From contig NZ_JAHXPQ010000001.1 of NCBI RefSeq assembly GCF_019391655.1, forward strand, positions 248,001 through 312,000: a stretch of 64,000 bases of DNA. The letters are read 5' to 3'. Shown here one piece after another: positions 6,571-39,300 of the stretch; the first letter of the stretch is position 1, and each line of letters begins with the position of its first letter. The position numbers and the translations under genes are program-made. Under the pieces are notes generated by a model. That model was not told the DNA's origin. It made no database searches and was given only the letters and a program-made list of their open reading frames with translations. The stretch is from Mucilaginibacter rivuli (GTDB lineage: Bacteria > Bacteroidota > Bacteroidia > Sphingobacteriales > Sphingobacteriaceae).

Positions 6571-7644
6571 TTATGCAATGCTTCCTTCCTGCAGTTTTTC
6601 GGCGTTCTCGGCAAACTGTAGGGCTTCCATTATTTCTAATAAATTACCGTTCATTACTTCGGGTAAGTTATAGATAGTGAGGCCAATGCGGTGCTCGGTA
6701 ACACGCCCTTGCGGATAATTGTAGGTGCGTATCTTTGCTGAACGGTCACCTGTTGATACCATCGTTTTTCTTTTCTTCGATATTTCTTCGAGGTGCTTTT
6801 GAAGCTCCATTTCGTAAATACGCGAGCGTAAAACGCCTAAAGCCTTGTCATAATTCTTCAATTGCGACTTTTGATCCTGGCATTGTGCTACTATCCCGGT
6901 AGGGATGTGCGTTAACCTTACGGCCGAATAGGTGGTATTTACCGATTGTCCGCCTGGCCCCGAAGCGCAGAACAGATCTTTACGGATATCGTTTACATGG
7001 ATCTCCACGTCAAACTCATCAGCTTCGGGTAAAACCACTACCGATGCAGCCGAAGTGTGTACACGGCCCTGTGTTTCCGTGTCAGGTACACGTTGTACCC
7101 GGTGTACACCCGATTCAAATTTTAGCGTACCATAAGCATCCTCAGCATTCACGTTAAAAATGATCTCCTTGTAGCCACCCGCGGTACCTTCGGTATAATC
7201 AACCAGCTCGGTTTTCCAGCCTTGCTTTTCGCAGAAGCGGATATAAGCACGGTATAAATCGCCGGCAAACAACGCGGCCTCATCGCCACCTGTGCCACCA
7301 CGTATCTCAACAATAGCATTACGGCTATCTTCCGGATCTTTAGGTATTAGCATCAACCGGATTTTTTCTTCCAGCTCAGTTTGCTGTGGTAATAGTTCAT
7401 CCAGTTCGGCTTTAGCCATCTCCCTAAAGTCGGGATCTTTTTCTGTAGCCAAAATTTCGCGGTTAGCTTCAATGTTGCTCATCACGTTGGCATACACGGT
7501 GTACTCTTCAACAACCTTGGTCAGGTCTTTATATTCCTTATTCATCGCGGCAAAGCGTTTCATATCCTTCATAATATCCGGACTGCTTAACTCGCGTTCA
7601 ACATCTTGCCAGCGTTCTTTTATCGCTTCTAACTTATCTAACAT
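6571..7644 (-). CDS. prfA: Peptide chain release factor 1
   Basis: 357 residues, normal RF1 length. Cytoplasmic factor that reads UAA and UAG in the ribosomal A site and triggers peptidyl-tRNA hydrolysis. The peptidyl-transferase loop [10 protein letters not shown] is intact, preceded by the anchoring [20 protein letters not shown] block. The stop-codon-reading tripeptide, PxT in RF1, appears as PDT ([14 protein letters not shown]); the usual form in E. coli is PAT. The family-typical [15 protein letters not shown] closes domain 3. Monocistronic, 60 bases downstream (in its own direction of reading) of nothing but the tRNA; divergent from the gluQ-like gene. Confidence 0.97.
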
Positions 7645-7785
7645 GTTATTTTGAAATTGTTATTGCGTTATATTGGTATCAATAACCTATACCTAATACT
7701 ACAAATAATATGCAAAAGTACAGAATTTAAGTAATAAACGTATTTTGCATGCCAATTAGGCATAATCCCGATATCAGTCAACCAA

Positions 7786-8667
7786 ATGCAACAAGCAAAG
7801 GCTATTTTTAATAAAACACGTATAGCGCCAACTCCAAGCGGGTTTTTACATTTGGGGAATGCGCTGTCGTTCGCCATCACTGCTGCGTTGGCCCATAAAA
7901 CAGGGGCTAAAATATTACTCCGCATTGACGACCTCGACCAGGCCCGCATGCGCAGCGAATATGTTCAGGATATTTTTGATACCCTTAATTTTTTAGAGAT
8001 ATCCTGGCACGAAGGTCCGCGCGATATGGGCGATTTTAACAAACATTGGTCGCAAGTGCAGCGGTTGGGTCTATACAACAATGCGCTTAACCGTCTGAAA
8101 CAAAGCAACAGTATATTCGCCTGTAGTTGCTCGCGCGCCGATATCCCCGAAAGCGGAATTTATCCCGGTACTTGCCTTAATAAAGGATTGCCCTTAGATA
8201 CCCCTAATACCAGTTGGCGCTTTAAAACTGATAGTAATCCCATCGCTGTTCGCACATTTCCTTCCGGGATAGTAAATTCCAGGCTTTCGCCGGATATGCG
8301 ATATTTCATTGTACGGAAAAGGGATGGCTACCCTGCGTACCAGTTAGCATCGTTGGTTGATGACCTTCATTTCGGCATCGATCTCATCATTCGCGGACAG
8401 GATCTTTGGCCTTCAACGCTTGCGCAGTTACAACTGGCAAACAGGCTTGATGAAAATGCATTTGTTAACACAAATTTTTACCATCATCCATTGCTAATGG
8501 CCGATGGTAATAAAAAGCTATCAAAATCTGCAGGGGATACTTCTATCAAATATCTGATAGAACAGGGTAAAAATGCAGCAGATATTTATACAATGATAGC
8601 TGCCCATACCGGGGAGGAACAAAGAGTTAATAACTGGCTGGAACTATCACATCTTTTGGGATCATAG
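7786..8667 (+). CDS. gluQ: Glutamyl-Q tRNA(Asp) synthetase-like protein
   Basis: 293 residues, matching truncated GluRS paralogues that lack the anticodon-binding domain. GluQRS adenylates glutamate and attaches it to queuosine at position 34 of tRNA-Asp. Seen here: RIAPTPSGFLHLGNA (class I HIGH-type motif), LLRIDDLD, a putative zinc site (CSC near 110, then Y and C about 12-14 residues later), and KKLSKSAGD (KMSKS equivalent, with the second K-L-S-K-S form). A full-length GluRS would be about 500 residues, so gltX is expected elsewhere. The match to GluQRS over a degenerate GluRS rests on length and the zinc cysteines. Confidence 0.85.
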   Translation: MQQAKAIFNKTRIAPTPSGFLHLGNALSFAITAALAHKTGAKILLRIDDLDQARMRSEYVQDIFDTLNFLEISWHEGPRDMGDFNKHWSQVQRLGLYNNALNRLKQSNSIFACSCSRADIPESGIYPGTCLNKGLPLDTPNTSWRFKTDSNPIAVRTFPSGIVNSRLSPDMRYFIVRKRDGYPAYQLASLVDDLHFGIDLIIRGQDLWPSTLAQLQLANRLDENAFVNTNFYHHPLLMADGNKKLSKSAGDTSIKYLIEQGKNAADIYTMIAAHTGEEQRVNNWLELSHLLGS

Positions 8668-8679
8668 CTGATATCGATG

Positions 8680-9441
8680 TCAGATTTCCGACCTCTTCTC
8701 AAAATATTCCAACTTCAGCTCTTCGCCATCAAAAACGGCATAGCTAAAATGGTTAAGCCAATCGCCGAGGTTAATGTAGCGGCTTTTGTCGTTGAGTTGG
8801 ATATCAAGTGGGAGGTGCCTGTGGCCAAAAATAAGGTAATCAAAAAAACGGGCTTGCAGCACTTCGCGTGAGTAGGTCACCAGCCATTCCTGCTCCAATA
8901 CTTTACGTACTTCGTTATTCCCCTGTACCACTTTACTTCGGTGCGACCAGTGGTTTGCTACGCCTACGCCCAAATTTGGGTGTATCCGTTCAAATAGCCA
9001 TTGGCAAATTTTACTGCGGAAAAACTTTTTCAACATTTTATACTTGGCATCGCCCGGGCCAAGGCCATCACCATGGTGCAGGTAAAACTTTTTACCGTTT
9101 CGCTCAATCTCCAGTTCGTTAGTAATGATTGTGGCATTAAACTCTTGTTGAAAATACTCGAACATCCACATATCATGGTTGCCTTTAAACATGTAGAGTT
9201 TAATGCCCGCATCGGTAAGCTCGGCAAGTTTGCCTAAAAAACGCACATATCCTTTTGGTACTACGGTAGTATATTCAAACCAAAAATCAAATACATCGCC
9301 CATCAAAAACACCTCGGTGGCATCGGCTTTTATTATATCCAGCCACCGCACTAATTTATCTTCACGCTCACGACTGGTGGCGTAGTTGGGCACTCCCAAA
9401 TGAAAATCAGACGCGAAGTAAAGTTTATGGCGGTTACTCAT
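8680..9441 (-). CDS. lpxH: UDP-2,3-diacylglucosamine diphosphatase (lipid A synthesis)
   Basis: 253 residues from ATG 9441. An upstream in-frame TTG at 9450 is rejected because a -7 promoter element overlaps it. Calcineurin-like metallophosphoesterase with all metal-site blocks: DFHLG, GDVFDFW, GNHDMW, HHGDGLG and GHRHLP. It hydrolyses UDP-2,3-diacylglucosamine to lipid X and UMP at the inner face of the inner membrane. DFHLG where classic LpxH has DLHL is common in Bacteroidota. Convergent with gluQ (12-base gap). Confidence 0.9.
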   Translation of the reverse strand: MSNRHKLYFASDFHLGVPNYATSREREDKLVRWLDIIKADATEVFLMGDVFDFWFEYTTVVPKGYVRFLGKLAELTDAGIKLYMFKGNHDMWMFEYFQQEFNATIITNELEIERNGKKFYLHHGDGLGPGDAKYKMLKKFFRSKICQWLFERIHPNLGVGVANHWSHRSKVVQGNNEVRKVLEQEWLVTYSREVLQARFFDYLIFGHRHLPLDIQLNDKSRYINLGDWLNHFSYAVFDGEELKLEYFEKRSEI

Positions 9442-9447
9442 GGTTGC

Positions 9448-9455
9448 CAAAAGTA
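9448..9455 (-). promoter_or_regulatory. -7 element for lpxH, adjacent to the start codon
   Basis: Minus-strand TACTTTTG matches TAnnTTTG and ends 6 bases before the ATG. The start point would fall on or next to the A of ATG, so the lpxH mRNA is likely leaderless or nearly so. Confidence 0.45.
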
Positions 9456-9538
9456 ATTATTTTGTTGTTAGTTTTTAAGGGTAGTGTAGCAGCACATCCG
9501 TCAAACCCGATATCGAAATTCAGACATCCGAAATTAAC

Positions 9539-12034
9539 TTACTTCCCAACCATAAATACCGCGTTGCTGAATAACAGCTTACCATTCTCCCAAAAACTGC
9601 GGAAAAGCGGATCATCTGCCATATAAATAATACTGCCCCGGCCCGATGATTGTACACCCAAAAGCATACCCTCGCTTAATTTAGCTTTGGTTTTCTGGCC
9701 AACAAAACCGGCCTGGTAGGCGTCTTTTTTTATAGTGCCTACGTTCCAGTCGCCATCGCCAAGGTAGTCGTACAGGTCGTCGCCCTGCTTAAGCGAATAA
9801 TAGAATTTGGGCAGCCCATATGCCAGCGGGTGGGTATTATCTAAACTCAGCTTATAGATAGCGCCCGGGATGCTGCTTTTAAGGGCCTCGCGGTCACGGT
9901 CTTCATAAGGTATCAGGTCTTTTGCTGTAGTGGTTTTCTTGTCATCCTTTTTCTCGGTAGTTTTGCTTTTGATGTTAAAGCCTTTTTTATCAATAAGGCT
10001 GCTTACCGCATTTTCCATGGCTATCAGTTTGCCGCCATCGCGTATCCAGGCCTGTATCTTTTCGAGAGGCGCATTGTCATATCCGCCATCGGGTAATATA
10101 GCCACATCAAAATCGCTCCACTTAATGCGGTTCAGATCCTGTAGCCGAACAACAGTTACAGGGTAACCAATTTGCTGCTCAAATAAATGCCAAACCTCGC
10201 CCACGCTACCCGAGCTTACACCATCCCCTGCCACCAGCATAATGCGTGGCCTGGTAATATAGCGTATCTGCGCCGAGCCAAAATCGGCACCCTTATCTAC
10301 AAAGCCGCTGGCAAGCGCGGTAAGGCTACGGCCAAACTTTAAGGCGGTTTGCTGTATCAACTGGTCAAAGTTGGTTTGCGTGTTCCCTGCATGGGTAATA
10401 ATAAGCGAGCCTGCATCAAATGATTTTCCCGCTGCAGTAAAAGGCCGCTCTGCATAGCGCACTTTTATATTCAGTTTTAGCAAGGCCGCCAAAAAGCGTA
10501 CATCTGCCATCGATTTCCATTGCGATACATAAGCGTAAGGGTGGTCGGTAGCAATAGGTTTCTCGGGCGTAACCGGCATAGCTGATGCCTGGAATTTTAC
10601 GCTTTGTTTTAAACCATAGGTTTTTAAGCCATAAGCATAAGGCAGGGCCCAGGCGGTAATATCATAGGTATTACTATCGGTCATGAAGGTTTTTGGCTCA
10701 AACAATACGCTCAGCAAAACCGATTTTGGCTGGTGCGCATCTATCACCAGATCTTTAGCATCAATAGCGAAATTTTCGGTAGCGCCGGTAAAATAGTTAA
10801 AGCCGGGGCCATTTGCTGTACCACCAAAACCATATTGTATGCCGTTGCGGTCGAGCAGTTGGGCAAGGGTCTCTATTTTATCTGTATTATCATTTTTTAT
10901 CACGTAGCCTTTGAAGTCGCCTGCAGGGCTATTTACACTATTACTAAAAAATTTTTTAAACTCACCTAGCAGTTTGGGCGCATTTGCCGATGCGGTTTCA
11001 ACCGTACTTAGCCCGCTGGTAATATGGTGGTTAATACGTTGGCCCAGCGTAAGTGTATCGCCATCGCGGGTGGCAATGCCCAGGCCCGCTGCAATACCAC
11101 CCTGCTCATACGTCATCCCGATAGCGCCGTTGTATAATGGGTACGTATCGCCGTATGATGGGTATAACAAGTCAAACTCTTCTTTGGTAAAATACATCCA
11201 GTTGTTAAGGTCAAAGTATTTGGCGTTGTTTTTACCAATGGTGATCTGAAAATCCTTTTGCCATTGCGTAATCACTTTATGAAAAGGCTCGGCAGCAGGA
11301 GCAAAGTAATAAGGGTTATTATAACCTTGCTCATGGAAATCGACATGTATTTGTGGCAGCCAATGGTTGTATAGCGCCAGCCTGGCCTGTGTTTCTTTTT
11401 GTGTTTGCCATGCCCAGTCGCGGTTAAGGTCAAAATAATAATGGTTTACGCGCCCGCCCGGCCATGGCTCAAAATGCTCGCGCGATGATGGGTTGTCATC
11501 GGGCACGGCGCTGTGTATGGGGTTATAAAAGTTAACATAGCGGTCGCGGCCATCGGGATTAAGGCAGGGATCAATTACCACAATGGTATTAACAAGCCAT
11601 TTTTTGGCTTCGGCGTTATCGGGATTTGCCAAAATATATGCGGTTTGCATGGCGGCTTCGCTGCTGCTGGGCTCGTTGCCGTGTACGTTATAACTTAGCC
11701 AAACAATAGCCGGGCCGTTGGTATTAGCGGTGCCGCTTTCAAGCCCCGCAATGCGCAGGTTATTTTTGCGTATTTCTTCCAGGTTATTAATATTGGCCTC
11801 GGTGCCAATATATGCCGCAAAGAGTGGCCTGTTCTCATTGGTGCTGCCAAAGGGTAATACTTTTATGTTTTTTGATGCCTGCCCTAAATATAAAAAGTAA
11901 TCAACTATGCGGTAATGCGGGGTAAACTGGCTACCCAAATCATAACCTAAAAACTCTGATGGTGATTTTAGCTTTTGTGCGAAACCATTAAAAAACAGGC
12001 AGACAAATAGTGCAAGGAAGAGGTATTTTTTCAT
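9539..12034 (-). CDS. Secreted M14-family zinc carboxypeptidase
   Basis: 831 residues with a clear Sec signal peptide (MKKYLFLALFVCLFFNGFAQ, cleavage near residue 20). The M14 zinc site is present: HGNEPSSSE (His and Glu ligands), the substrate Arg/Asn region in DPCLNPDGRDRY, FHEQGYNNPYY (third ligand His), and a catalytic-type Glu in MTYEQGG. The C-terminal third (~560-750) looks like a glutamine-amidotransferase-like Rossmann domain (MLVAGDGVSSGSVGEVWHLFE, DVAILPDGGYDN) found in large Bacteroidota M14 proteins. Predicted periplasmic or surface peptidase. No partner genes; divergent from recQ. Confidence 0.88.
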   Translation of the reverse strand: MKKYLFLALFVCLFFNGFAQKLKSPSEFLGYDLGSQFTPHYRIVDYFLYLGQASKNIKVLPFGSTNENRPLFAAYIGTEANINNLEEIRKNNLRIAGLESGTANTNGPAIVWLSYNVHGNEPSSSEAAMQTAYILANPDNAEAKKWLVNTIVVIDPCLNPDGRDRYVNFYNPIHSAVPDDNPSSREHFEPWPGGRVNHYYFDLNRDWAWQTQKETQARLALYNHWLPQIHVDFHEQGYNNPYYFAPAAEPFHKVITQWQKDFQITIGKNNAKYFDLNNWMYFTKEEFDLLYPSYGDTYPLYNGAIGMTYEQGGIAAGLGIATRDGDTLTLGQRINHHITSGLSTVETASANAPKLLGEFKKFFSNSVNSPAGDFKGYVIKNDNTDKIETLAQLLDRNGIQYGFGGTANGPGFNYFTGATENFAIDAKDLVIDAHQPKSVLLSVLFEPKTFMTDSNTYDITAWALPYAYGLKTYGLKQSVKFQASAMPVTPEKPIATDHPYAYVSQWKSMADVRFLAALLKLNIKVRYAERPFTAAGKSFDAGSLIITHAGNTQTNFDQLIQQTALKFGRSLTALASGFVDKGADFGSAQIRYITRPRIMLVAGDGVSSGSVGEVWHLFEQQIGYPVTVVRLQDLNRIKWSDFDVAILPDGGYDNAPLEKIQAWIRDGGKLIAMENAVSSLIDKKGFNIKSKTTEKKDDKKTTTAKDLIPYEDRDREALKSSIPGAIYKLSLDNTHPLAYGLPKFYYSLKQGDDLYDYLGDGDWNVGTIKKDAYQAGFVGQKTKAKLSEGMLLGVQSSGRGSIIYMADDPLFRSFWENGKLLFSNAVFMVGK

Positions 12035-12128
12035 TTCAGCTCATGTGACAAGCTAATCTAAAAAAGATTTATCAAAAAAAGCATTATAGCGTACATAAAC
12101 ATGCCTGCAGATATTAACTTTACCGTGA

Positions 12129-14282
12129 ATGACCACCCACGAAGCACTGCATAAATATTTTGGTTACAACGGTTTCCGCCACGAGCAGGAAGCCATTATC
12201 AATAATGTAATTAAACAACAGGATACGCTGGTGCTGATGCCTACCGGGGGCGGTAAATCAATTTGCTACCAGTTACCCGCTGTGATGTTTGATGGTTTAA
12301 CGGTAGTGATATCACCATTGATAGCCTTGATGAAGGACCAGGTTGACGCGTTGAACATTAACGGCATCAAAGCGGCATTCCTCAACTCATCACAAAATGA
12401 GGGTGAGCAGCGGGTGCTTATCCAGCAATTACGTAATAACGAGATCAAACTTTTATACCTCGCGCCTGAGCGGCTGTTCAGCTCCGAGAGCCGTTTGATC
12501 GATTTCCTCAAAACATTAAAAGTTTCGCTCATCGCGATAGATGAGGCGCACTGTATATCGCACTGGGGACATGATTTCAGGCCCGAATACCTGATGCTGG
12601 CCGGACTGAAAATATCATTCCCCAACATACCGGTAATTGCTTTAACCGCTACGGCGGATAAGATCACACGAAACGATATCCTCGATAAACTTAACCTGAA
12701 CGATCCGGCTGTATTTATCTCCTCGTTCGACAGGCATAACATCAGTTACCGCATATCCCCCAAAAGGAAAAGCTTCGACCAGTTGCTTGACTTTTTAGAT
12801 ACGCATAAAGATGAATCGGGTATTATTTATTGCTTATCGCGACAATCGACCGAAAAGCTTGCGCAAGATCTGCGCGATGAGGGTTTCCAGGCAGAGGCTT
12901 ACCATGCGGGGTTAGACCGCGCTACCAAAGACAAAAACCAGGAAGCTTTTTTACGCGATGAGGTAAAGATCATCGTCGCTACCATCGCTTTCGGGATGGG
13001 TATTAACAAAAGCAACGTACGCTATGTGGTGCACATGGACCTGCCCAAAAACATTGAAGGCTATTACCAGGAAACAGGCCGCGCCGGGCGTGATGGTTTG
13101 TCGAGCGAGGCCCTGCTGTTCTTCTCATACGGTGATGCCGAAAAGCTGAAAGGCTTTGCCAAAGTAGAAGGTAACGAAGAGCAAAGCAGGATCATGCTGA
13201 AAAAGCTGGATGATATGGTACGCTTTTGCCAGTTGCACACCTGCCGGCGCCAGTTTTTGTTGCGATACTTTGATGAACAGGCCCCCGACCATTGCGGCGC
13301 CTGCGATGTATGCCTGAGCGATGTAGAAAAGATAGATGGTACAGTGATAGCGCAAAAACTGTTTTCGGCTATAGCCCGCACCGGCGAAAGCTTTGGGATG
13401 GGTTATATCATTGAATTTTTGCGCGGCTCAAAAAGCGAAAAGATCCGCGAAAGCCATAAACAGCTCAAAACCTACGGCATTGGTGCCGATATCAGCAAAG
13501 CCGACTGGCAGCAATACATTCGCGAACTGATGGCGCAGGATTACATCAACATTGAAGGCGACCCGTACCCGATATTAAAACTGCAGCCCAAAGCATCATT
13601 GGTACTCAAAGGGCAACAGGAAGTGTTACTCACCAAAATACAGGTTATCCACGAGCGGGAAACACCACAATTTGCGTTGCCGTATGAAGCCGGTTTATTG
13701 GCCGAATTGAAACAAATACGAACTACAATTGCCAACAGGGAAAATGTACCACCCTATATCATTTTATCGGATGCCGGCTTGCAGGAAATGGCTACCTATT
13801 TGCCGCAGGAGCTGAGCGAACTAAGGCAAATATCCGGCTTTGGCGATGTAAAGCTTGCCCGCTATGGCGAGGCATTCAGCACGGCGATAGTTAGTTATTG
13901 TAAGCAGCATGATCTTACGTCTAAAATAAGTCTGAAATCTCCCAAAAAGGAACGTAAGGCAAAATCATCATCAGGCCCGAACAATACACAGCGCGAAAGT
14001 TTCACCCTGTTTAAAGCTGGCATGGCTGTGGGTGAAATAGCCAAAGTGCGTGGTTTATCAACCGTTACGATAGAGGGCCACCTCAGCATTTTTGTAAAAA
14101 GCGGCGAGATCGATGTATCGGAAATTACCGCTCCTGAAAAAATACCCGCCATTAAAAATGCAATTGAAAGTTATGGCGATGCTCAGTTAAGTCCGTTAAA
14201 AGAAGTTTTGGGCGAGGGCTACAGTTACGGTGAGATAAAAGCCGTAATAGCCTGGATGCAGGGGATGAAAGAAAATAAATAG
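12129..14282 (+). CDS. recQ: ATP-dependent DNA helicase RecQ
   Basis: 717 residues. 3'-5' superfamily 2 helicase in recombination and fork repair. Helicase motif I MPTGGGKSICYQ (Lys43), motif II IDEAHCISHWGHDFRPEY (DEAH plus the RecQ aromatic loop), motif III ALTATAD, and motif VI QETGRAGRDG are all present. The zinc-binding domain carries C...C..(17)..CGACDVC. A winged-helix region and an HRDC-like segment (~530-600) follow. The tail ends with a helix-turn-helix-like block (GEIAKVRGLSTVTIEGHLSI) typical of the long Bacteroidota/Firmicutes RecQ. Confidence 0.96.
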   Translation: MTTHEALHKYFGYNGFRHEQEAIINNVIKQQDTLVLMPTGGGKSICYQLPAVMFDGLTVVISPLIALMKDQVDALNINGIKAAFLNSSQNEGEQRVLIQQLRNNEIKLLYLAPERLFSSESRLIDFLKTLKVSLIAIDEAHCISHWGHDFRPEYLMLAGLKISFPNIPVIALTATADKITRNDILDKLNLNDPAVFISSFDRHNISYRISPKRKSFDQLLDFLDTHKDESGIIYCLSRQSTEKLAQDLRDEGFQAEAYHAGLDRATKDKNQEAFLRDEVKIIVATIAFGMGINKSNVRYVVHMDLPKNIEGYYQETGRAGRDGLSSEALLFFSYGDAEKLKGFAKVEGNEEQSRIMLKKLDDMVRFCQLHTCRRQFLLRYFDEQAPDHCGACDVCLSDVEKIDGTVIAQKLFSAIARTGESFGMGYIIEFLRGSKSEKIRESHKQLKTYGIGADISKADWQQYIRELMAQDYINIEGDPYPILKLQPKASLVLKGQQEVLLTKIQVIHERETPQFALPYEAGLLAELKQIRTTIANRENVPPYIILSDAGLQEMATYLPQELSELRQISGFGDVKLARYGEAFSTAIVSYCKQHDLTSKISLKSPKKERKAKSSSGPNNTQRESFTLFKAGMAVGEIAKVRGLSTVTIEGHLSIFVKSGEIDVSEITAPEKIPAIKNAIESYGDAQLSPLKEVLGEGYSYGEIKAVIAWMQGMKENK

Positions 14283-32458: not shown

Positions 32459-35182
32459 ATGAAACATCGTATTAGTTTTTGCTTTTCGGCCATGTTGTTC
32501 TTATTGCTGCCATTTGGCTTATTGGCCGCAAATCCGGGAAAGCCGTTAAACCTGCGTTGCCATAACAAATACTGCCCAATAGGTACCGAAGCAAAACCAT
32601 ACTTTGGCTGGTACGTAAATGATGCCGATGCCAACGAGGTACAAACCGCATACCAGTTACAGGTATCAACAAACCCCAACGCCGCTGCCGCAGATGTTTG
32701 GAACAGCGGTAAAGTAAAATCCGACAAACAGAACTATGTATATTATGCTGGTAAAGCGCTTTTACCCGCAACCCGGTATTACTGGAAAGTGAAAACATGG
32801 GACAAAGACGGGCACGAAAGCCCTTATTCGGCTACGCAATATTTTGATACGGGCCTGTTTGACAGCCAGGATTGGGCAGGCGCCAAATGGGTAAAACGCA
32901 ACACCACCGATAAGGATGATTATACCTACTATCGCAAAACAAAAGCTCTGCCCGCTAAAACCATTAAGCGTGCAATAGCCTATATATCTGCCGTGCATAA
33001 TTACGAGTTTTACATCAATGGCAAATTCATCAGCAAAGGCTCGGTTAATCATTACCCGCAATATCAGTATTACCACGCTTTTGATGTAACTGCCGATATC
33101 CATCCCGGTGAACGGAATCTGATTGCAGCACTAACCCATTGGTATGGCGGCGGCCAGGGTCGTGCTCCCAGTCAGCGTGGCTTTATCATGAAAACCATTA
33201 TCGAGTATGCTGATGGCTCTAAAACAACCATCAGTACTGATAGCACCTGGAAACAACATCAGGCCGAATATTGGATTACCGGGCAGCCACAGCGTGGGGG
33301 CGAGGGTATTGGCTTTCAGGATAAAATAGACTCGCGCAAAGCCATCACCAATTGGTTTACCGCCGGTTGCGATGATACTGCATGGCCAACCGCTACAGAA
33401 ATAGGCGCCCCGCTCGTAGCGCCATGGATAAATAACCTCCAGCCAGACCTGACCCGTGTTATCGAAAAAGAAATTACACCCCTAAGCGTAACCAGCCTCG
33501 GCGGGAACAAATACCTGGTTGACCTTGGCAAAATTTATGCCGGCATACCGGTCATTAATTTTTCGGGTGGCAACGCGGGCGACATGGTAAGCATGCGCGG
33601 TGGCTTTGTGTTAAACAACGATGGCACCATGAACGAAAAGATGAACCAAAGTACCAACCTGGCTTATTACTTTATATTAAATGGCAACAATGCTGTTTTT
33701 AAGCCCATGGTGTACTTGGGAATGCGCTACCTGGAGATCGATAATTCGCCCAATGTGTTAACTACGGTCAATGTTAAATTTATTATGCGCCATTTTGAGT
33801 TGGACGAAAACCGCTCCTCCTTTACCTCATCCAACACCATGCTCAACCGGGTTTGGGAGCTGATGAAATACTCACTGGTAGCAGGTGCTCAGGAAGGCTT
33901 TGTAGATACCCCTACGCGCGAAAAGGGTTCATTTTTAGGTGATGGCTGGTCGGAAGCGGTACCCGCTATGAGCGTGATGGGCGACCGGGTAATGAACGAC
34001 CGGGTACTCAACGAGTTTATGCAGTCGCAAGACCAGTACTGGCCCGATGGCCGCCTAAACTCAGTATACCCAAATGTTGATGGCAAAAGGGATATACCCG
34101 ATTATACACAATCGTATCTTGTTTGGGTTTGGGATTACTATGAGCAAACCGGCAACGCGCAGTTTTTAATTGATAATTATACGCGCCTTAAAAAAATAGC
34201 CGATTACGTTGACCGTTATAAAAGCCCAAAAACCGGGCTTATCCATAACCTGGCCGGCGGCAGCGGGCCTTACCTGTATGGTATTATCGACTGGCCTTCG
34301 CCGATGCGTTATGGCTATGATATGAGTACCGAAGCCCGTACTGTGATCAACGCTTATGCCTATATTGATTTTAGTAACCTGTCGAAAATTGCAGGCGTAG
34401 TAGGTAATACTGCTGATAGCGTAACCTATGCCGATAAAGCCATGGCTATAAAAAAAGCCATCAACACGCAACTCATCAATAGTAATGGCGTTTACAACGA
34501 TGGTTTACACGCTGATCTTTCGCCAAGTACACATACATCGCAACATGCCAATATGTATCCAATGGCAATGGGTATTGTGCCACCTGCCAGCCGGGATGCG
34601 GTTATAAATGAAATAAAAAAGCAAAAAATGAGCGTTGGTATGGTAACGGTTAGATATCTGCCCCTCGCCATTGGCGAAGCCGACCAGGGCGCGCACTTGA
34701 TTAATCTATTCACCAATACCGAATGGGACGGATGGGCCAAAAATATCACCCAAGGCGCTACCGTAACATGGGAATCCTGGGATGCGGATAAACGCAACGA
34801 TAGTATGTCGCACCCATGGGGAGCAGTGGGCTTATTGGGTATGGAGGATTATATTTTGGGCATTAAAGTGCTTAAAGCGCAACATAAGTTGATACAGGTA
34901 AAACCACTCGAATTTAACCATGCACTAGATTATGCCAAAGGAACCTTACCTACAGATCGTGGCGATGTAAGCATTGAATGGAAACGCGGCGCTAAAAGTT
35001 ATGTGATGACCCTCACCATCCCCGCAAACGTAAAGGCGAAGGTATATATACCTAAAAGTGGTACAAGCGGGAACCGGTTAATGGTTGACGGCAAACCGAT
35101 AAACGCCGTTGCTGAGGGAAATTACCTTTTTGCAGGTCTTATGGGATCAGGGAAACACACTTTTGTACGGAACGCAAATTAA
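32459..35182 (+). CDS. GH78 alpha-L-rhamnosidase
   Basis: 907 residues with signal peptide (MLFLLLPFGLLAA). Order: fibronectin-like N-terminal domain (NLRCHNKYCPIGTEAKPYFGW), the rhamnosidase N domain (YISAVHNYEFYINGK...), a beta-sandwich, then the (alpha/alpha)6 catalytic barrel. The last has EGFVDTPTREKGSFLGDGWSE, whose Asp and Glu match the GH78 active-site loop, and the C-terminal jelly roll (PTDRGDVSIEWKRG). Releases terminal L-rhamnose from plant glycans. It stands apart from any SusC/SusD pair, so no polysaccharide-utilisation locus is visible in the window. Confidence 0.9.
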   Translation: MKHRISFCFSAMLFLLLPFGLLAANPGKPLNLRCHNKYCPIGTEAKPYFGWYVNDADANEVQTAYQLQVSTNPNAAAADVWNSGKVKSDKQNYVYYAGKALLPATRYYWKVKTWDKDGHESPYSATQYFDTGLFDSQDWAGAKWVKRNTTDKDDYTYYRKTKALPAKTIKRAIAYISAVHNYEFYINGKFISKGSVNHYPQYQYYHAFDVTADIHPGERNLIAALTHWYGGGQGRAPSQRGFIMKTIIEYADGSKTTISTDSTWKQHQAEYWITGQPQRGGEGIGFQDKIDSRKAITNWFTAGCDDTAWPTATEIGAPLVAPWINNLQPDLTRVIEKEITPLSVTSLGGNKYLVDLGKIYAGIPVINFSGGNAGDMVSMRGGFVLNNDGTMNEKMNQSTNLAYYFILNGNNAVFKPMVYLGMRYLEIDNSPNVLTTVNVKFIMRHFELDENRSSFTSSNTMLNRVWELMKYSLVAGAQEGFVDTPTREKGSFLGDGWSEAVPAMSVMGDRVMNDRVLNEFMQSQDQYWPDGRLNSVYPNVDGKRDIPDYTQSYLVWVWDYYEQTGNAQFLIDNYTRLKKIADYVDRYKSPKTGLIHNLAGGSGPYLYGIIDWPSPMRYGYDMSTEARTVINAYAYIDFSNLSKIAGVVGNTADSVTYADKAMAIKKAINTQLINSNGVYNDGLHADLSPSTHTSQHANMYPMAMGIVPPASRDAVINEIKKQKMSVGMVTVRYLPLAIGEADQGAHLINLFTNTEWDGWAKNITQGATVTWESWDADKRNDSMSHPWGAVGLLGMEDYILGIKVLKAQHKLIQVKPLEFNHALDYAKGTLPTDRGDVSIEWKRGAKSYVMTLTIPANVKAKVYIPKSGTSGNRLMVDGKPINAVAEGNYLFAGLMGSGKHTFVRNAN

Positions 35183-35270
35183 GGGGCCGAAATACACATT
35201 CGGGTATACAATTAATAAGATCAGGTGTTATGTTATATCTGTAATAAAGCGGTTTTATTGTAAAGTATTT

Positions 35271-35420
35271 TTACGTCCCCATAAAAAAGTGAATAATGCT
35301 GTCAGGGTCGATGCCGAGGCCTAATGTTTCATTATTAACTGAAAGTATTTCGATAGTAGGTTTGCGCCAGGTTTCTTTTGATGGCTGATTGGTAAGGGGA
35401 GTAATGTGTTGCGTTTGCAT
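35271..35420 (-). CDS. Putative lasso-type RiPP precursor peptide B
   Basis: 49 residues on the minus strand. Leader: W18-R-K-P-T-I-E-I-L, then Thr32-Leu33 and Gly34. The predicted 16-residue core is GLGIDPDSIIHFFMGT, with Gly1 and Asp7. It is aligned residue for residue with peptide A from the Trp to Gly-Leu at the core start. In lasso precursors an aromatic-x-x-Pro leader motif binds the RRE protein, Thr sits at position -2, and core Gly1 is joined to Asp/Glu at 7-9. Spacing fits. Starts 56 bases after peptide A. No lasso maturation gene is near. Confidence 0.6.
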   Translation of the reverse strand: MQTQHITPLTNQPSKETWRKPTIEILSVNNETLGLGIDPDSIIHFFMGT

Positions 35421-35476
35421 ATATATAATATAGTAGTTTTTGTTTAATGCAATAATAAAGAGCTGGGTATAAAATA

Positions 35477-35626
35477 TTAGGTACCATCGCTGTGCCCATC
35501 ATCGCCTGTGGTTGGTAAACCCAGGGTATTATCTTTAGCTCCTAAAACTATAATTTGCGGCTTATGCCATGCTTCCCTTACTTCTGCGGTTTTTTCAAAT
35601 TGTTTGTCGTGTATTTTTTCTTCCAT
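35477..35626 (-). CDS. Putative lasso-type RiPP precursor peptide A
   Basis: 49 residues on the minus strand, the same length as peptide B. Leader: W20-H-K-P-Q-I-I-V-L, then Thr34-Leu35-Gly36. The predicted 14-residue core is GLPTTGDDGHSDGT, with Asp at 7 and 8 as possible ring acceptors. The core is polar where that of B is hydrophobic, while the leader motif is conserved, the pattern of selection on a leader with variable cores. Both end in Gly-Thr. A promoter-like TAGTTTTG lies 27 bases upstream. Alternatives: another RiPP class using an RRE domain. Confidence 0.6.
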   Translation of the reverse strand: MEEKIHDKQFEKTAEVREAWHKPQIIVLGAKDNTLGLPTTGDDGHSDGT

Positions 35627-35652
35627 AATTAAGGGTTTAAAAATCTTACTTT

Positions 35653-35660
35653 CAAAACTA
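35653..35660 (-). promoter_or_regulatory. -7 element for the precursor peptide pair
   Basis: Minus-strand TAGTTTTG fits TAnnTTTG, 26 bases before the ATG of peptide A. A TTG about 25 bases further upstream is a weak -33 candidate. Its presence suggests the pair has its own transcription start. Confidence 0.4.
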
Positions 35661-35721
35661 ATTTATAGAATAAAAAAATAAAATGCAATATCATTAGGCC
35701 TCTGCACCGCTGTAGTTGCGC

Positions 35722-36381
35722 TTACTGTACAAGATAAATTTTCAAAGCAATAAATACCACGCACATTACGATACCAAGAATGCGTATATTTTTACCATGT
35801 TTCCGGTCGGCCTCGGCAAAGCTATAAACCTGCTCGCCGTTAGGTAGTGTCTTTTTCGCCGTTGATAAATACCAGCCAATAAAAACACCGATCAAGCCAC
35901 CCAAAAGCGAAAAAATATAGCCTAATGTTACCCCTAAAGTTTGCCTTTCTTCGGGTTGTTTCAGCATATCTATCTTGTCCTGCTTAAAATCCGCGATGTG
36001 CCGGTCGTTAATAACCACACCGCGCTCTTTCAGTATTTTCCGGGCAAGGGCAAAATCAAACGCGCTCCATTCATCAAAGTTTTTAACAATATCCACTAAT
36101 TCCTGGTCAGTAAAGTCAAACAGGTAATAACCGGCTTCCACATCATTTAGTGCTTCTTCTTCTTCGGCAACGAGCAGGTTGTTTACCTTATCAAAATCGT
36201 GTTGCTGTAATTTAATCAGGTACTCTCTCATCAATTCATCACCCGATACCATGAGCGGGTTAGCTATTAACGATTCCTCGCCTACTTCATATTCAATTTC
36301 GTTTGCGTCAAGTAAGTCGGTCAGGCTCTTGGCCAAAGCCGGTTCATTAAACCGGCGGAATGTTAAAAATTGCTGCTGCAT
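35722..36381 (-). CDS. DUF2007-type hypothetical protein with C-terminal membrane helices
   Basis: 219 residues from ATG 36381, directly after the helicase stop at 36383. The N-terminal ~70 residues (LTFRRFNEPALAKSLTDLLDANEIEYEV...DFDKVNNLL) match the small signal-transducing DUF2007/YqjL-like fold, an alpha-beta ferredoxin-like unit. Two transmembrane helices lie at about 155-175 and 200-218. It is translated from the same mRNA as the helicase-nuclease, but no functional link is known to me. Confidence 0.65.
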   Translation of the reverse strand: MQQQFLTFRRFNEPALAKSLTDLLDANEIEYEVGEESLIANPLMVSGDELMREYLIKLQQHDFDKVNNLLVAEEEEALNDVEAGYYLFDFTDQELVDIVKNFDEWSAFDFALARKILKERGVVINDRHIADFKQDKIDMLKQPEERQTLGVTLGYIFSLLGGLIGVFIGWYLSTAKKTLPNGEQVYSFAEADRKHGKNIRILGIVMCVVFIALKIYLVQ

Positions 36382-36382
36382 A

Positions 36383-39300
36383 TTATTGTTCAATATCGTC
36401 TTCGGTTGTTTCCTGTAACTCCTCCTTTTGCTCAAAATTACTCCTTACAAAATGGCACCAATCACATTCCTTTTTACCGCAGCCGGTATTAAAATCGTGG
36501 TTCAATATCTTTTGGTAAACATCCTTTATCTGCCCGGTAACCTGTTCCACATCCTGCGGGGTTATCACCACCTTTTCTTTGTGGTACTCGCTTTCGCTAA
36601 TAGGTTCAACAAACTCAAATTCGGTACTTATCACTTCCCAATCCAGCGTGCGGTCGTTATCAATTAAAATCTTATAAAATACCGCCTGGCGCCAGTAATC
36701 CCCACCAATAGGTTCGCTATCGTTAGGGCGGTTAAATTTGCTTTTAGCATTTTTATACTTGCCCGTTTTGTAGTCCACCACGTTTACCTGCTTGCCGGTA
36801 AACTCAATTTTATCCAGGTTACCCTTTATTGGGATGCCCGCTATCTCTACATTCTTTATACCCCTTTCGGTGATGGCGATCTTGTTCCATTTGGTAAGAT
36901 TTTGCTCGTAATACGGTGGCAGTATCTTCTCACCATAATCAAGTCGTAACTTAAAATCTTCCTTGGTGAACGAATCGCGGTTACGGTACATATACCACCT
37001 GAACTGCCCCATAAAATCATCCGTTGCCGGGAACTCGTTATTGTTATCCGCCAAAGCACGAAACACCTTATTTAGCGCCCAGTGCACTGCCTGCCCAAAC
37101 GTAGCCGCCGGACTCTTGCCCGCCGGCACCCTGATCAAATTCTGGAAATAGAATTTCAACGGGCAATCCAAATAATTGCTCAAATGCGTTACCGATAGGG
37201 TGTAGTTTTGCAGCAGATGGTCAATGTAGTTTTTATCTATCAGGCTCACTTTGGGCTTTTCGGCCTCGTTGAACTGGGTCATAAAAAACTCCATCATCGC
37301 ATCCTCATTCACTTTCGGATATTCAATGTTATGGTGCGTATCGGCCAAAATCTCACCAATAAACTGCGACGATTCCTGTGGCTTGCCACTTTTTTCCTTG
37401 CCGGGATAGGATATCATCAGGCATTGCTTGGCCCTCGTCACCGCCACATAAAACAACCTGCGCGATTCTTCTTTTTGCGCGGTATCATCTGCCGAAGCCA
37501 TGGTCAGCGTATCGGGGTAACTAAAGCCCGAGTTGCGGCCCTTGCTGTCCCATATCTTTTTGGTGCAACCTATCAGGAACACATACTCAAACTCCAAACC
37601 TTTGGAGCCATGCGCCGTCATAAAGTTTACTCCGTTCTCGGCAAATATCACCTGGTTCAGTTCCAGCGATATGCTGTTGCGCTTCATCAGGTCAATAATG
37701 GCCACAAAATCTGCCGGGGTGATTTCGGGTAACTTGCGGCTCTCATCCTTCAAAAAGTTGAAGATACTGGTGAGTACCTGCATAAACCAACCCTTATTGG
37801 GCTGCTCCATAATGTATTTGAGGATACCCATCTTGGCTATCATCTTCTGGAACAACTGTTGAAGCGTTAGACTCACAGCATCAGTGAGCAGCATATCAAT
37901 ATCGTTCACCAAAAACTTCATTTTGGTGGTTTGGTCGGCCGGGGTAAACAGATCGGCCTTGGGCGTTTTCATCTCGTGGATGTAGCGGCGCAAGGATGTT
38001 TTACCCTGGTTGTTGGCTAAGCCAAAATTGTTCTTCGACACCTCGATACTGGCCTTGGCTATTTCTATCGGCGCTATCCCAAAAAAATCATAATGCAATA
38101 TCTCGAACAGCAACTCATCGCCGCTATACGGCGAATCGAGCTCCATAGCCAGGTAGCGTAAAATCGAGATCACCTTTTCGCCGAAAGGCAGTTCCAACAC
38201 GTTGATCTTACGGCGGGTGCTTACCGCTATCTTTTTCTGGTCAAGGAAATGCACCAGGTCTTCCACCTGGTTGTGGTTGCGGTATATCACCGCTATTTCA
38301 CCGGGCTCGGTGCCGTTACTTATCAGCTTTTCTATCTGCAATGCCACATCAACAATTTCCTGCTCCGGGTTATCGTATTCGCGAATGACGGGCTCAACGG
38401 CCAGCTCATCAAAACGCGGGTGCGATGATTGCAGGTTTTTATCCAGCGCGAGCTGTTTGGTTAAACGCTCGTTATTATTATCGATCAATACTTTCGAGAT
38501 ATTGAGGATATGCTGGTTGGAGCGGTAATTATGCTTCAATACCACGGTATATAGCGTGCTCACATAATCATTCGCGAAGTCCAGGATGTTCTTCATGTTC
38601 GCCCCCTGGAACTTGTATATCGACTGGTCATCATCACCAACCACAAACACGTTAGGGGTTTCCCAGTAGTTCAGTATAAACTTCAACAACTCATTCTGCG
38701 AACCGCTCGTATCCTGGAACTCATCTACCAAAATATACTGGTAGCGTTCCTGGTAACGGCGTAATATCTCCTCGTTCTCGCGGAAAGCGCGCAGCACCCA
38801 AATGATCATGTCGTCATAATCATACCGCCCCTGCGCCTTCATTTTGGCATCGTAGTTCTGGTATTCGCCAACTGCAGCCAGCAGTTGGTTCATTTTTTCG
38901 GCAACTGCGTCAATATCCTTTTGCTTTGGATCGCCTACGTTAATGCCCAGCTTGGCATTGGCGCGTTTGTAGGTAAACTCATCCCGTAATGGGATATCAG
39001 CCAAATATTCCTCCACAGCTTTTTTGATCAGGGCTGCATCCCAGCTCTCGCGCTTCATGGTCGAGAACAAGCTTTTCAACCGTGAAACATCATAATATAC
39101 ATCGCCTGTAAAGCGTTTCAGAGGGTGCGTGTTAGAAAACTCATCCACCAATTCTCGGAATAGTAAAGCCGAATCCAAATCGGACAGTGGCTCCAGATTC
39201 ATCTTGCCAAAATACTCCAGGTTCTCCTGTATTACCTCATTACAAAACGCATGGAAGGTGTATATATTCACACGATATGCATCCGGGCCGATAAAATCGA

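What the first reader, a model, noticed from the sequence alone, without database searches (positions are those of the whole stretch)
35271..35626. Two orphan lasso-type precursor peptides with matching leaders and different cores
Two unannotated 49-residue ORFs in tandem share W-x-K-P-x-I-x-[VI]-L and, at identical spacing, T-L-G-L. They differ in the core: GLPTTGDDGHSDGT and GLGIDPDSIIHFFMGT. Conserved leader with Trp-x-x-Pro, Thr at -2, Gly1 and Asp at 7 fits lasso peptides, and a seven-residue ring would be at the small end of the known range. Both cores end Gly-Thr. No RRE protein, leader protease or asparagine-synthetase-like cyclase is within the window; downstream lies only a convergent rhamnosidase gene. 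They may be matured in trans.
Basis: partly seen in the sequence, partly recalled or inferred. Interest (0 to 1): 0.8.

Follow-up and report, generated by a model that had tools for sequence, protein, structure and literature searches.

The report
Lasso-peptide precursors scattered around the genome
Two small genes in this Mucilaginibacter-type genome look like precursors of knotted "lasso" peptides whose maturation enzymes are encoded on another contig, and related species carry up to about 18 such scattered precursors, an arrangement I did not find described for lasso peptides.

Summary
In detail: two 49-residue minus-strand ORFs, A (35477-35626) and B (35271-35420), share a lasso-type leader and differ in the core. 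The window holds no lasso enzymes, but the genome has one lasso cluster on another contig (B1, B2, cyclase C, two HprK-like kinases, sulfotransferase, nucleotidyltransferase) with a leader-matched precursor. A profile of in-cluster precursors only recovers that precursor, B, A and a fourth, orphan precursor on a third contig, then nothing below E 0.8. A relative carries a B-type precursor inside its cluster. A, the fourth and the cluster peptide fit Gly1-Asp8 rings; only B needs a seven-residue ring.

The pattern is wider. Among 149 genus genomes, strong precursor matches occur in 9, each of them among the 15 with B2. One single-contig genome has 18 (one degenerate), none within 26 kb of its B2 or cyclase; two others have 17 and 13. 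In 11 Chitinophaga-type genomes precursors sit beside lasso enzymes. One scattered locus shared by two species shows purifying selection. Best reading: lasso precursors matured in trans, a lasso counterpart of prochlorosins. Expression, maturation, ring and threading are inferred, not shown.

The parts
35477..35626 (-). Precursor A (49 aa): leader 35522-35626 (35 aa, ends NTL), predicted core GLPTTGDDGHSDGT 35480-35521, stop 35477-35479
   Evidence: ORF; found at E 9.3e-6 by a profile of in-cluster precursors only; core boundary inferred from the T(-2)-x-G1 alignment
35271..35420 (-). Precursor B (49 aa): leader 35322-35420 (33 aa, ends ETL), predicted core GLGIDPDSIIHFFMGT 35274-35321, stop 35271-35273
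   Evidence: ORF; E 4.9e-10 with the in-cluster-only profile; in-cluster homologue in G135, L023 10261-10413
35653..35660 (-). TAGTTTTG, a TAnnTTTG element (Bacteroidetes-type -7 box, recalled) 34 nt before the start of A; B has none and may be co-transcribed
   Evidence: weak, since the element is not enriched before the scattered precursors (8 of 57 against 233 of 2200 random places)

Best explanation
A and B are lasso-type precursor genes separated from their enzymes. The single B1 (PqqD/RRE type) of the cluster on contig C8 would bind the W-x-K-P-x-I leader, B2 would cut after T(-2)-L(-1), and C would join the amino group of Gly1 to Asp8 (A, the C14 peptide, the cluster's own peptide) or to Asp7 (B). 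One enzyme set would thus serve four precursors at three places on three contigs. Tailoring by the cluster's HprK-like kinase or sulfotransferase is possible. Other genomes of the genus carry the same division of labour further, with up to about 18 scattered precursors. Shown: the ORFs, the leader family, one enzyme set elsewhere in the genome, in-cluster homologues of both types, co-occurrence with B2, shared and conserved scattered loci. Inferred: expression, processing in trans, ring size, threading, tailoring.
For: One B2 (NF033537, over its cut-off) and one lasso-type cyclase in a complete cluster on C8. In-cluster-only profile finds exactly four precursors in the genome before noise. A B-type and an A-type-ring precursor lie between C and B1 in G135. 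In 149 genus genomes, matches at E <= 1e-5 occur in 9, each among the 15 with B2; without the six genomes that gave seeds, 3 of 3, hypergeometric 1.8e-4, relatedness not corrected. In 399 family genomes the 8 with E <= 1e-5 are all among the 18 with B2; only two of the 8, G337 and G474, were not sources of the model. 41 of 43 non-seed scattered precursors end in Ser against 178 of 2245 other small ORFs. One scattered locus with shared flank in two species has dN well below dS. B2 keeps Cys and His and K2 its His by eye.
Against: No expression or product data. A and B end in Thr, not the Ser of 55 of the 57 relatives. A has no NCBIfam hit and B only a sub-cut-off one. The TAnnTTTG element is not enriched before scattered precursors. 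The B1 and C models are below their curated cut-offs. The four precursors of this genome are few; the strong dispersal is in a second precursor family of other genomes. Tails of A, C14 and the cluster peptide are only 5-6 residues beyond the ring, so stable threading is not obvious.
Confidence: 0.8

Rival explanations
1. A and B are relics: lasso precursors left behind after a cluster was lost or moved, no longer expressed or matured.
For: They stand alone; B and C14 have no TAnnTTTG element of their own; degenerate scattered copies exist in relatives (L074 6011-6145 ends in Arg).
Against: Both ORFs are intact with every leader landmark and a usable D ring residue, and a leader-matched enzyme set is present in the same genome. 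In the wider family, scattered loci persist between species (L078/L151, L073/L070) and at L078/L151 dN is below dS in leader and core.
Confidence: 0.12
2. A and B are substrates of another enzyme system with a similar leader (another RRE-dependent RiPP class), not of the lasso cyclase.
For: RRE-type leaders are shared by several RiPP classes (established knowledge); no lasso gene lies beside the pair.
Against: The homologues of both types sit in lasso clusters with C and B1; matches track B2 in 149 and 399 genomes; Gly1 and an acidic residue at 7 or 8 are kept.
Confidence: 0.05
3. Chance ORFs with a look-alike motif.
For: A has no NCBIfam hit and only a weak, unrelated Pfam hit.
Against: Whole-genome E-values of 4.9e-10 and 9.3e-6 with a model that contains neither, and a clean gap to the next match.
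Confidence: 0.03

Closest known systems
Phosphorylated class II lasso peptides with split B1/B2 (paeninodin PadeA/PadeK; NCBIfam NF033524)
   Same: Same gene set B1, B2, C, HprK-like kinase, nucleotidyltransferase; C-terminal Ser in most relatives; B hits NF033524 at E 0.0021, below cut-off. PadeK modifies the C-terminal Ser of the precursor (PMC9266682, passages).
   Different: A and B lie away from the cluster and end in Thr; below the family cut-off.
BsfA-type lasso precursors with Ile(-2)
   Same: The second, larger precursor family in the genus has I/V where T(-2) is expected; PMC10368454 (abstract and passages) reports Ile(-2) precursors with kinase and nucleotidyltransferase.
   Different: BsfA is in its cluster; here most are not. 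A and B have T(-2).
Prochlorosins (one ProcM lanthionine synthetase, many precursors)
   Same: One enzyme set for many precursors (PMC10783134, abstract in the listing: a solitary promiscuous enzyme); spread around the genome is recalled.
   Different: Lanthipeptides; here macrolactam-forming lasso enzymes with a separate RRE and protease.
Caulosegnins I-III and other multi-precursor lasso clusters
   Same: Several precursors matured by one enzyme set, with 8- and 9-residue rings (PMC13352647, passages).
   Different: There, by recall, the precursors are inside the cluster.
Citrulassin
   Same: A lasso pathway with a part encoded outside the cluster (PMC8498205, passage).
   Different: There the outside part is a tailoring deiminase; here it is the precursor.

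Membership tests
Lasso peptide precursor | Leader with aromatic-x-x-Pro RRE motif and T (or I/V) at -2 | tested here: met
   A and B have W-x-K-P-x-I and T(-2); aligned with 16 others
Lasso peptide precursor | Residue 1 (mostly Gly) and Asp/Glu at 7-9 | tested here: met
   A: G1, D7 and D8; B: G1, D7 (D5 too close); 16 of 18 aligned precursors have D8. Range 7-9: PMC8498205 passage
Lasso peptide precursor | B1, B2 and C encoded in the genome | tested here: met
   cluster on C8
Lasso peptide precursor | Precursor gene beside B1/B2/C (usual, not essential to the chemistry) | tested here: not met
   no such gene in the 64-kb window; pair on C1, cluster on C8
Lasso peptide precursor | Threaded macrolactam product | not testable with these tools
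   needs co-expression and MS/NMR
Paeninodin family NF033524 | Score over the curated cut-off (27 bits) | tested here: not met
   B 17.7 bits; A no hit
Paeninodin-type phosphorylated lasso peptides | C-terminal Ser for the kinase | tested here: not met
   A and B end in Thr; the cluster and C14 peptides end in Ser
Prochlorosin-like one-enzyme-set, many-precursor arrangement (works like) | Many precursors, kindred leader, variable core, away from one enzyme set | tested here: met
   G031: 18 precursor places on one contig, nearest 26 kb from B2 or cyclase, none recognised inside its cluster. In G000: 4 precursors, 3 of them orphan
Prochlorosin-like one-enzyme-set, many-precursor arrangement (works like) | Enzymes promiscuous for all cores | not testable with these tools
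   needs reconstitution

The most novel reading that the evidence does not exclude
Some Mucilaginibacter species run a dispersed lasso-peptide library: one B1/B2/C set, with few or no precursors of its own, matures up to about 18 precursors scattered over the chromosome, whose leaders are held while cores diversify. The window's pair is a small T(-2)-type instance, and B adds a seven-residue-ring member. Cluster-centred mining would miss nearly all of these peptides.
Probability: 0.65. Interest if true: 0.85.

Novelty: new variant of a known kind. Interest (0 to 1): 0.77.

Why it matters
Lasso mining usually looks for precursors next to the cyclase (general knowledge). If precursors are matured in trans, lasso peptides in this group are undercounted, and these genomes offer natural sets of 4 to 18 substrates for one enzyme set: a direct test of how tolerant B1, B2 and C are, and of why a bacterium keeps many lasso peptide genes apart from each other and from their enzymes.

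Tried and rejected
Seven-residue ring for A: D7 is possible, but D8 is the aligned residue in 16 of the 18 precursors (the two exceptions are B and its homologue), so D8 is preferred.

Shared promoter: TAnnTTTG within 200 nt upstream in 8 of 57 precursors against 233 of 2200 random places, no real enrichment. The sigma-70 scan of 35150-35800 gave one plus-strand site against 2.9 expected, and one plus-strand terminator-like site against 0.4 expected; neither is on the strand of A and B.

Synteny of the window site: the 237-aa neighbour has relatives at 41-47% identity in nine same-genus genomes and 33-38% in two same-class genomes, 41 genomes searched; too distant to compare the intergenic stretch, not followed further.

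The first genome-contig scan, with the single cyclase, found nothing; the second allowed one, with three cyclases, found 33 loci.

Dispersal as a general habit of these clusters: not borne out by the control (21 genomes, chosen from the 33 loci). In 9 of 11 Chitinophaga-type genomes the matches fall in the coordinate range of the cyclase locus; in the other two (G167, G168) the precursor lies beside B1, B2 and a kinase, with the cyclase found elsewhere. Emticicia has three of four matches beside lasso enzymes and one weak one beside a sulfotransferase only. MAG G165 has two on contigs of 4 and 6 kb, undecidable.

Literature: the search listings showed no paper on lasso precursors scattered away from their cluster or on Mucilaginibacter lasso peptides. 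Only open-licence papers are held and I looked inside five (passages only).

Full report
What is in the window. Searches confirm two 49-residue ORFs on the minus strand, A (35477-35626) upstream of B (35271-35420), 56 bp apart. They lie between a convergent alpha-L-rhamnosidase gene (32459-35182) and a 237-aa gene on their own strand (35722-36435) with no Pfam match over cut-off. The leaders share W-x-K-P-x-I-x-[VI]-L and end T-L before the Gly; the cores differ. The seven enzyme genes of the genome's own lasso cluster match the window at best with E 0.31.

The enzymes are elsewhere in the same genome. G000 has 4.58 Mb in 14 contigs, 99.84% complete. Its one B2 match lies on C8 beside a lasso-type cyclase; a second Asn-synthase-type gene is on C9. 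L004 (C8:598000-617900) shows: 6786-7064 (+) PqqD-type B1; 7073-7963 (+) HprK-like kinase K1; 7926-8810 (+) sulfotransferase; 9001-9138 (-) precursor MENIITQNNDQPVKENWSKPEIFVTNAVEDTLGSTVMGGDGSALS; 9234-11123 (-) C; 11132-11542 (-) B2; 11542-12441 (-) kinase K2; 12481-13722 (-) nucleotidyltransferase. B2 passes its cut-off (86.7 bits, cut-off 33); B1 and C have lasso models as best NCBIfam hit but below cut-off (70.1 of 80 and 373.7 of 525). The pair is on C1 and the cluster on C8; their distance on the chromosome is not known.

Same leader family. With a model of A, B and the cluster peptide, the genome gave a fourth precursor that was not in the query, C14:185099-185212, E 1.3e-7: MKQNDEIRQAINLQTKQTWSKPELTLLSVNQDTLGLLSSGNDTYASHS, directly after a gene that I read as dnaN. 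The stricter test used four in-cluster precursors only (G000 cluster, two of G135, one of G075): in G000 it found the cluster peptide (5.1e-24, itself in the model), B (4.9e-10), C14 (1.5e-8), A (9.3e-6), then a non-precursor at 0.85.

Both peptide types occur inside clusters. G135, whose contig length equals that of a MAG of uncultured Mucilaginibacter, has between C and B1 the precursors METITTIENNSTQVKENWSKPEINIISVNEETLGSGTNGSDSMNGS and MDNYSIAKTKDLAPEKEAWSKPEVDITSVNEETLGLGVDAEKVIHFLSSS. The second core is a homologue of B (G-L-G-[IV]-D-x-[DE]-x-[IV]-I-H-F). G075, whose contig length equals one of Mucilaginibacter sp. E4BP6, has one more. I call the genus Mucilaginibacter on this ground. 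In-cluster precursors of other Bacteroidota align as T/I(-2)-x-G1 with Asp at 8, in 16 of 18 rows of A7. A, the cluster peptide and C14 fit G1-D8; B has D7, matched by Glu in its homologue.

A second, larger precursor family in the genus. Weak matches led to precursors of the form K-K-x-W-x-x-P ... [IV]-x-[SG]-[G/other] ... E. A model of 14 of them (A4) gave 78 places at E <= 0.1 in 24 of 149 genomes. I took 62 of the 78 on; left out were one place of G135, three of G000 and twelve weak or T(-2)-type ones. Of the 62, 57 gave a small ORF; five, in five genomes without B2, gave none. The 57: G031 18, G057 17, G128 13, G075 5, G099 2, G085 1, G041 1; 54 have W-x-x-P and 55 end in Ser. Two of 57 (one in G075, one in G041) lie within 20 kb of a B2 or cyclase on the same contig. 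G031 is one contig of 6.16 Mb; its nearest precursor is 26 kb from the enzymes, and I recognised no precursor inside its cluster or that of G128; an unrecognised one cannot be excluded. One ORF of G031 ends in Arg and one of G057 in Lys and look degenerate. In G057 the best lasso-type cyclase is on C5 and B2 on C3. G128 (350 contigs, 86% complete) and G099 (500 contigs, 84%) are fragmented, so 'elsewhere' there means another contig. From Trp, the acidic residue stands mostly at position 23 to 25, which gives an 8- or 9-residue ring if residue 1 is the S/G after [IV]-x; where the core starts is inferred.

Controls. B2 occurs in 15 of 149 genus genomes. Matches at E <= 1e-5 with A3 or A4 occur in 9 of 149 (G000, G031, G041, G057, G075, G085, G099, G128, G135), each B2-positive; the best in a B2-negative genome is 1.0e-4. 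The hypergeometric value is 6e-11, but six of the nine supplied seeds; for the other three it is 1.8e-4, relatedness not corrected. Six B2-positive genomes (G022, G082, G097, G118, G120, G142) gave no such match; G120 has an in-cluster candidate without Gly1. In 399 genomes of the family (25 genera, a sample that lists neither G128, G099 nor G041 among its matches), 11 matched A8 at E <= 0.001; the 8 at or below 1e-5 are among the 18 with B2, the three weaker ones are not, and ten B2-positive genomes had no match. Only G337 (precursor 1 kb from B2) and G474 (26 kb) among the 8 were not sources of the model. Of the 43 of 57 precursors not used as seeds, 41 end in Ser, against 178 of 2245 other small ORFs in the same loci. 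In 11 Chitinophaga-type genomes the matches lie at the cyclase locus (9) or beside B1 and B2 (2), so dispersal is not general.

Scattered loci as genes. Two orphan precursors of G031 have a homologue in G128 with shared flanking DNA: L078/L151 (upstream, 87% over 321 bases, offset by about 190) and L073/L070 (downstream, 88% over 443). L138 and L072 share a neighbouring stretch, but on opposite sides of the precursor. At L078/L151 leader dN/dS is 0.08/0.38 and core 0.27/1.07. In the five pairs compared the core is less conserved than the leader in each (0.71, 0.42, 0.28, 0.47, 0.61 against 0.83, 0.54, 0.42, 0.71, 0.71). Against uniform constraint: for L135/L077 core dN 0.45 is close to dS 0.54, and some dS values are saturated. 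Counts are small. For A and B themselves no such test was possible.

Mechanism. In split-B lasso pathways B1 binds the leader, B2 cuts it and C closes the ring (established knowledge; leader removal and Ile(-2) in PMC10368454, abstract and passages); kinases can act on the linear precursor (PMC9266682, passages). This chemistry does not require the precursor gene to be adjacent. By eye B2 keeps its Cys and His, and K2 the His, Lys and Asp-Asp positions, and C the SGGLDSS motif. K1 has Asn at the His position, so its activity is doubtful. Sulfotransferase genes are known from some Firmicutes lasso clusters, and 7-9 is the stated ring range (PMC8498205, passages).

Judgement. Lasso-type precursor identity of A and B is well supported by sequence; maturation in trans is the simplest reading; product and function are untested. 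The novelty lies in the arrangement, not in the chemistry: a new variant of a known kind.

Noticed in passing
L069 9088-9234 (+) (G000 C14:185087-185233): Fourth precursor of the window's genome, an orphan directly after a gene read as dnaN, convergent with a thioredoxin-like gene.
   Followed up: yes
L004 7073-7963 (+) and L024 14974-15927 (-): HprK-like kinases in lasso clusters with Asn or Tyr in place of the His that the other kinases keep; possibly inactive or changed in function.
   Followed up: partly
L004, L024-L026, L028-L031: Kinase and sulfotransferase genes lie side by side in most of the lasso clusters of the genus, which suggests phosphorylated or sulfated lasso peptides.
   Followed up: no
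L025 (G057 C3) and G057 C5:352133-353506: In G057 the best lasso-type cyclase is on a different contig from B1, B2, kinase and sulfotransferase: the enzyme set itself is split.
   Followed up: partly
L187, L188 and L246, L247 (Chitinophaga, G167 and G168): The precursor lies with B1, B2, kinase and nucleotidyltransferase, while the cyclase was found elsewhere (in G168 about 310 kb away, if contig lengths identify the contig): another split lasso enzyme set.
   Followed up: partly
L026 13090-13269 (+) (G120): In-cluster precursor candidate without Gly1 (ring would start at Leu or another residue).
   Followed up: no
L074 6011-6145 (-) (G031): Degenerate scattered precursor with a short leader and an Arg end, next to an intact copy: a decaying family member.
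   Followed up: no
L248 672-845 (-), L249 5841-5990 (+) (MAG G165): Two T(-2)-type precursors on contigs of 4 and 6 kb on which no lasso enzyme was found, besides one in a cluster; possible dispersal in another Bacteroidota lineage.
   Followed up: partly
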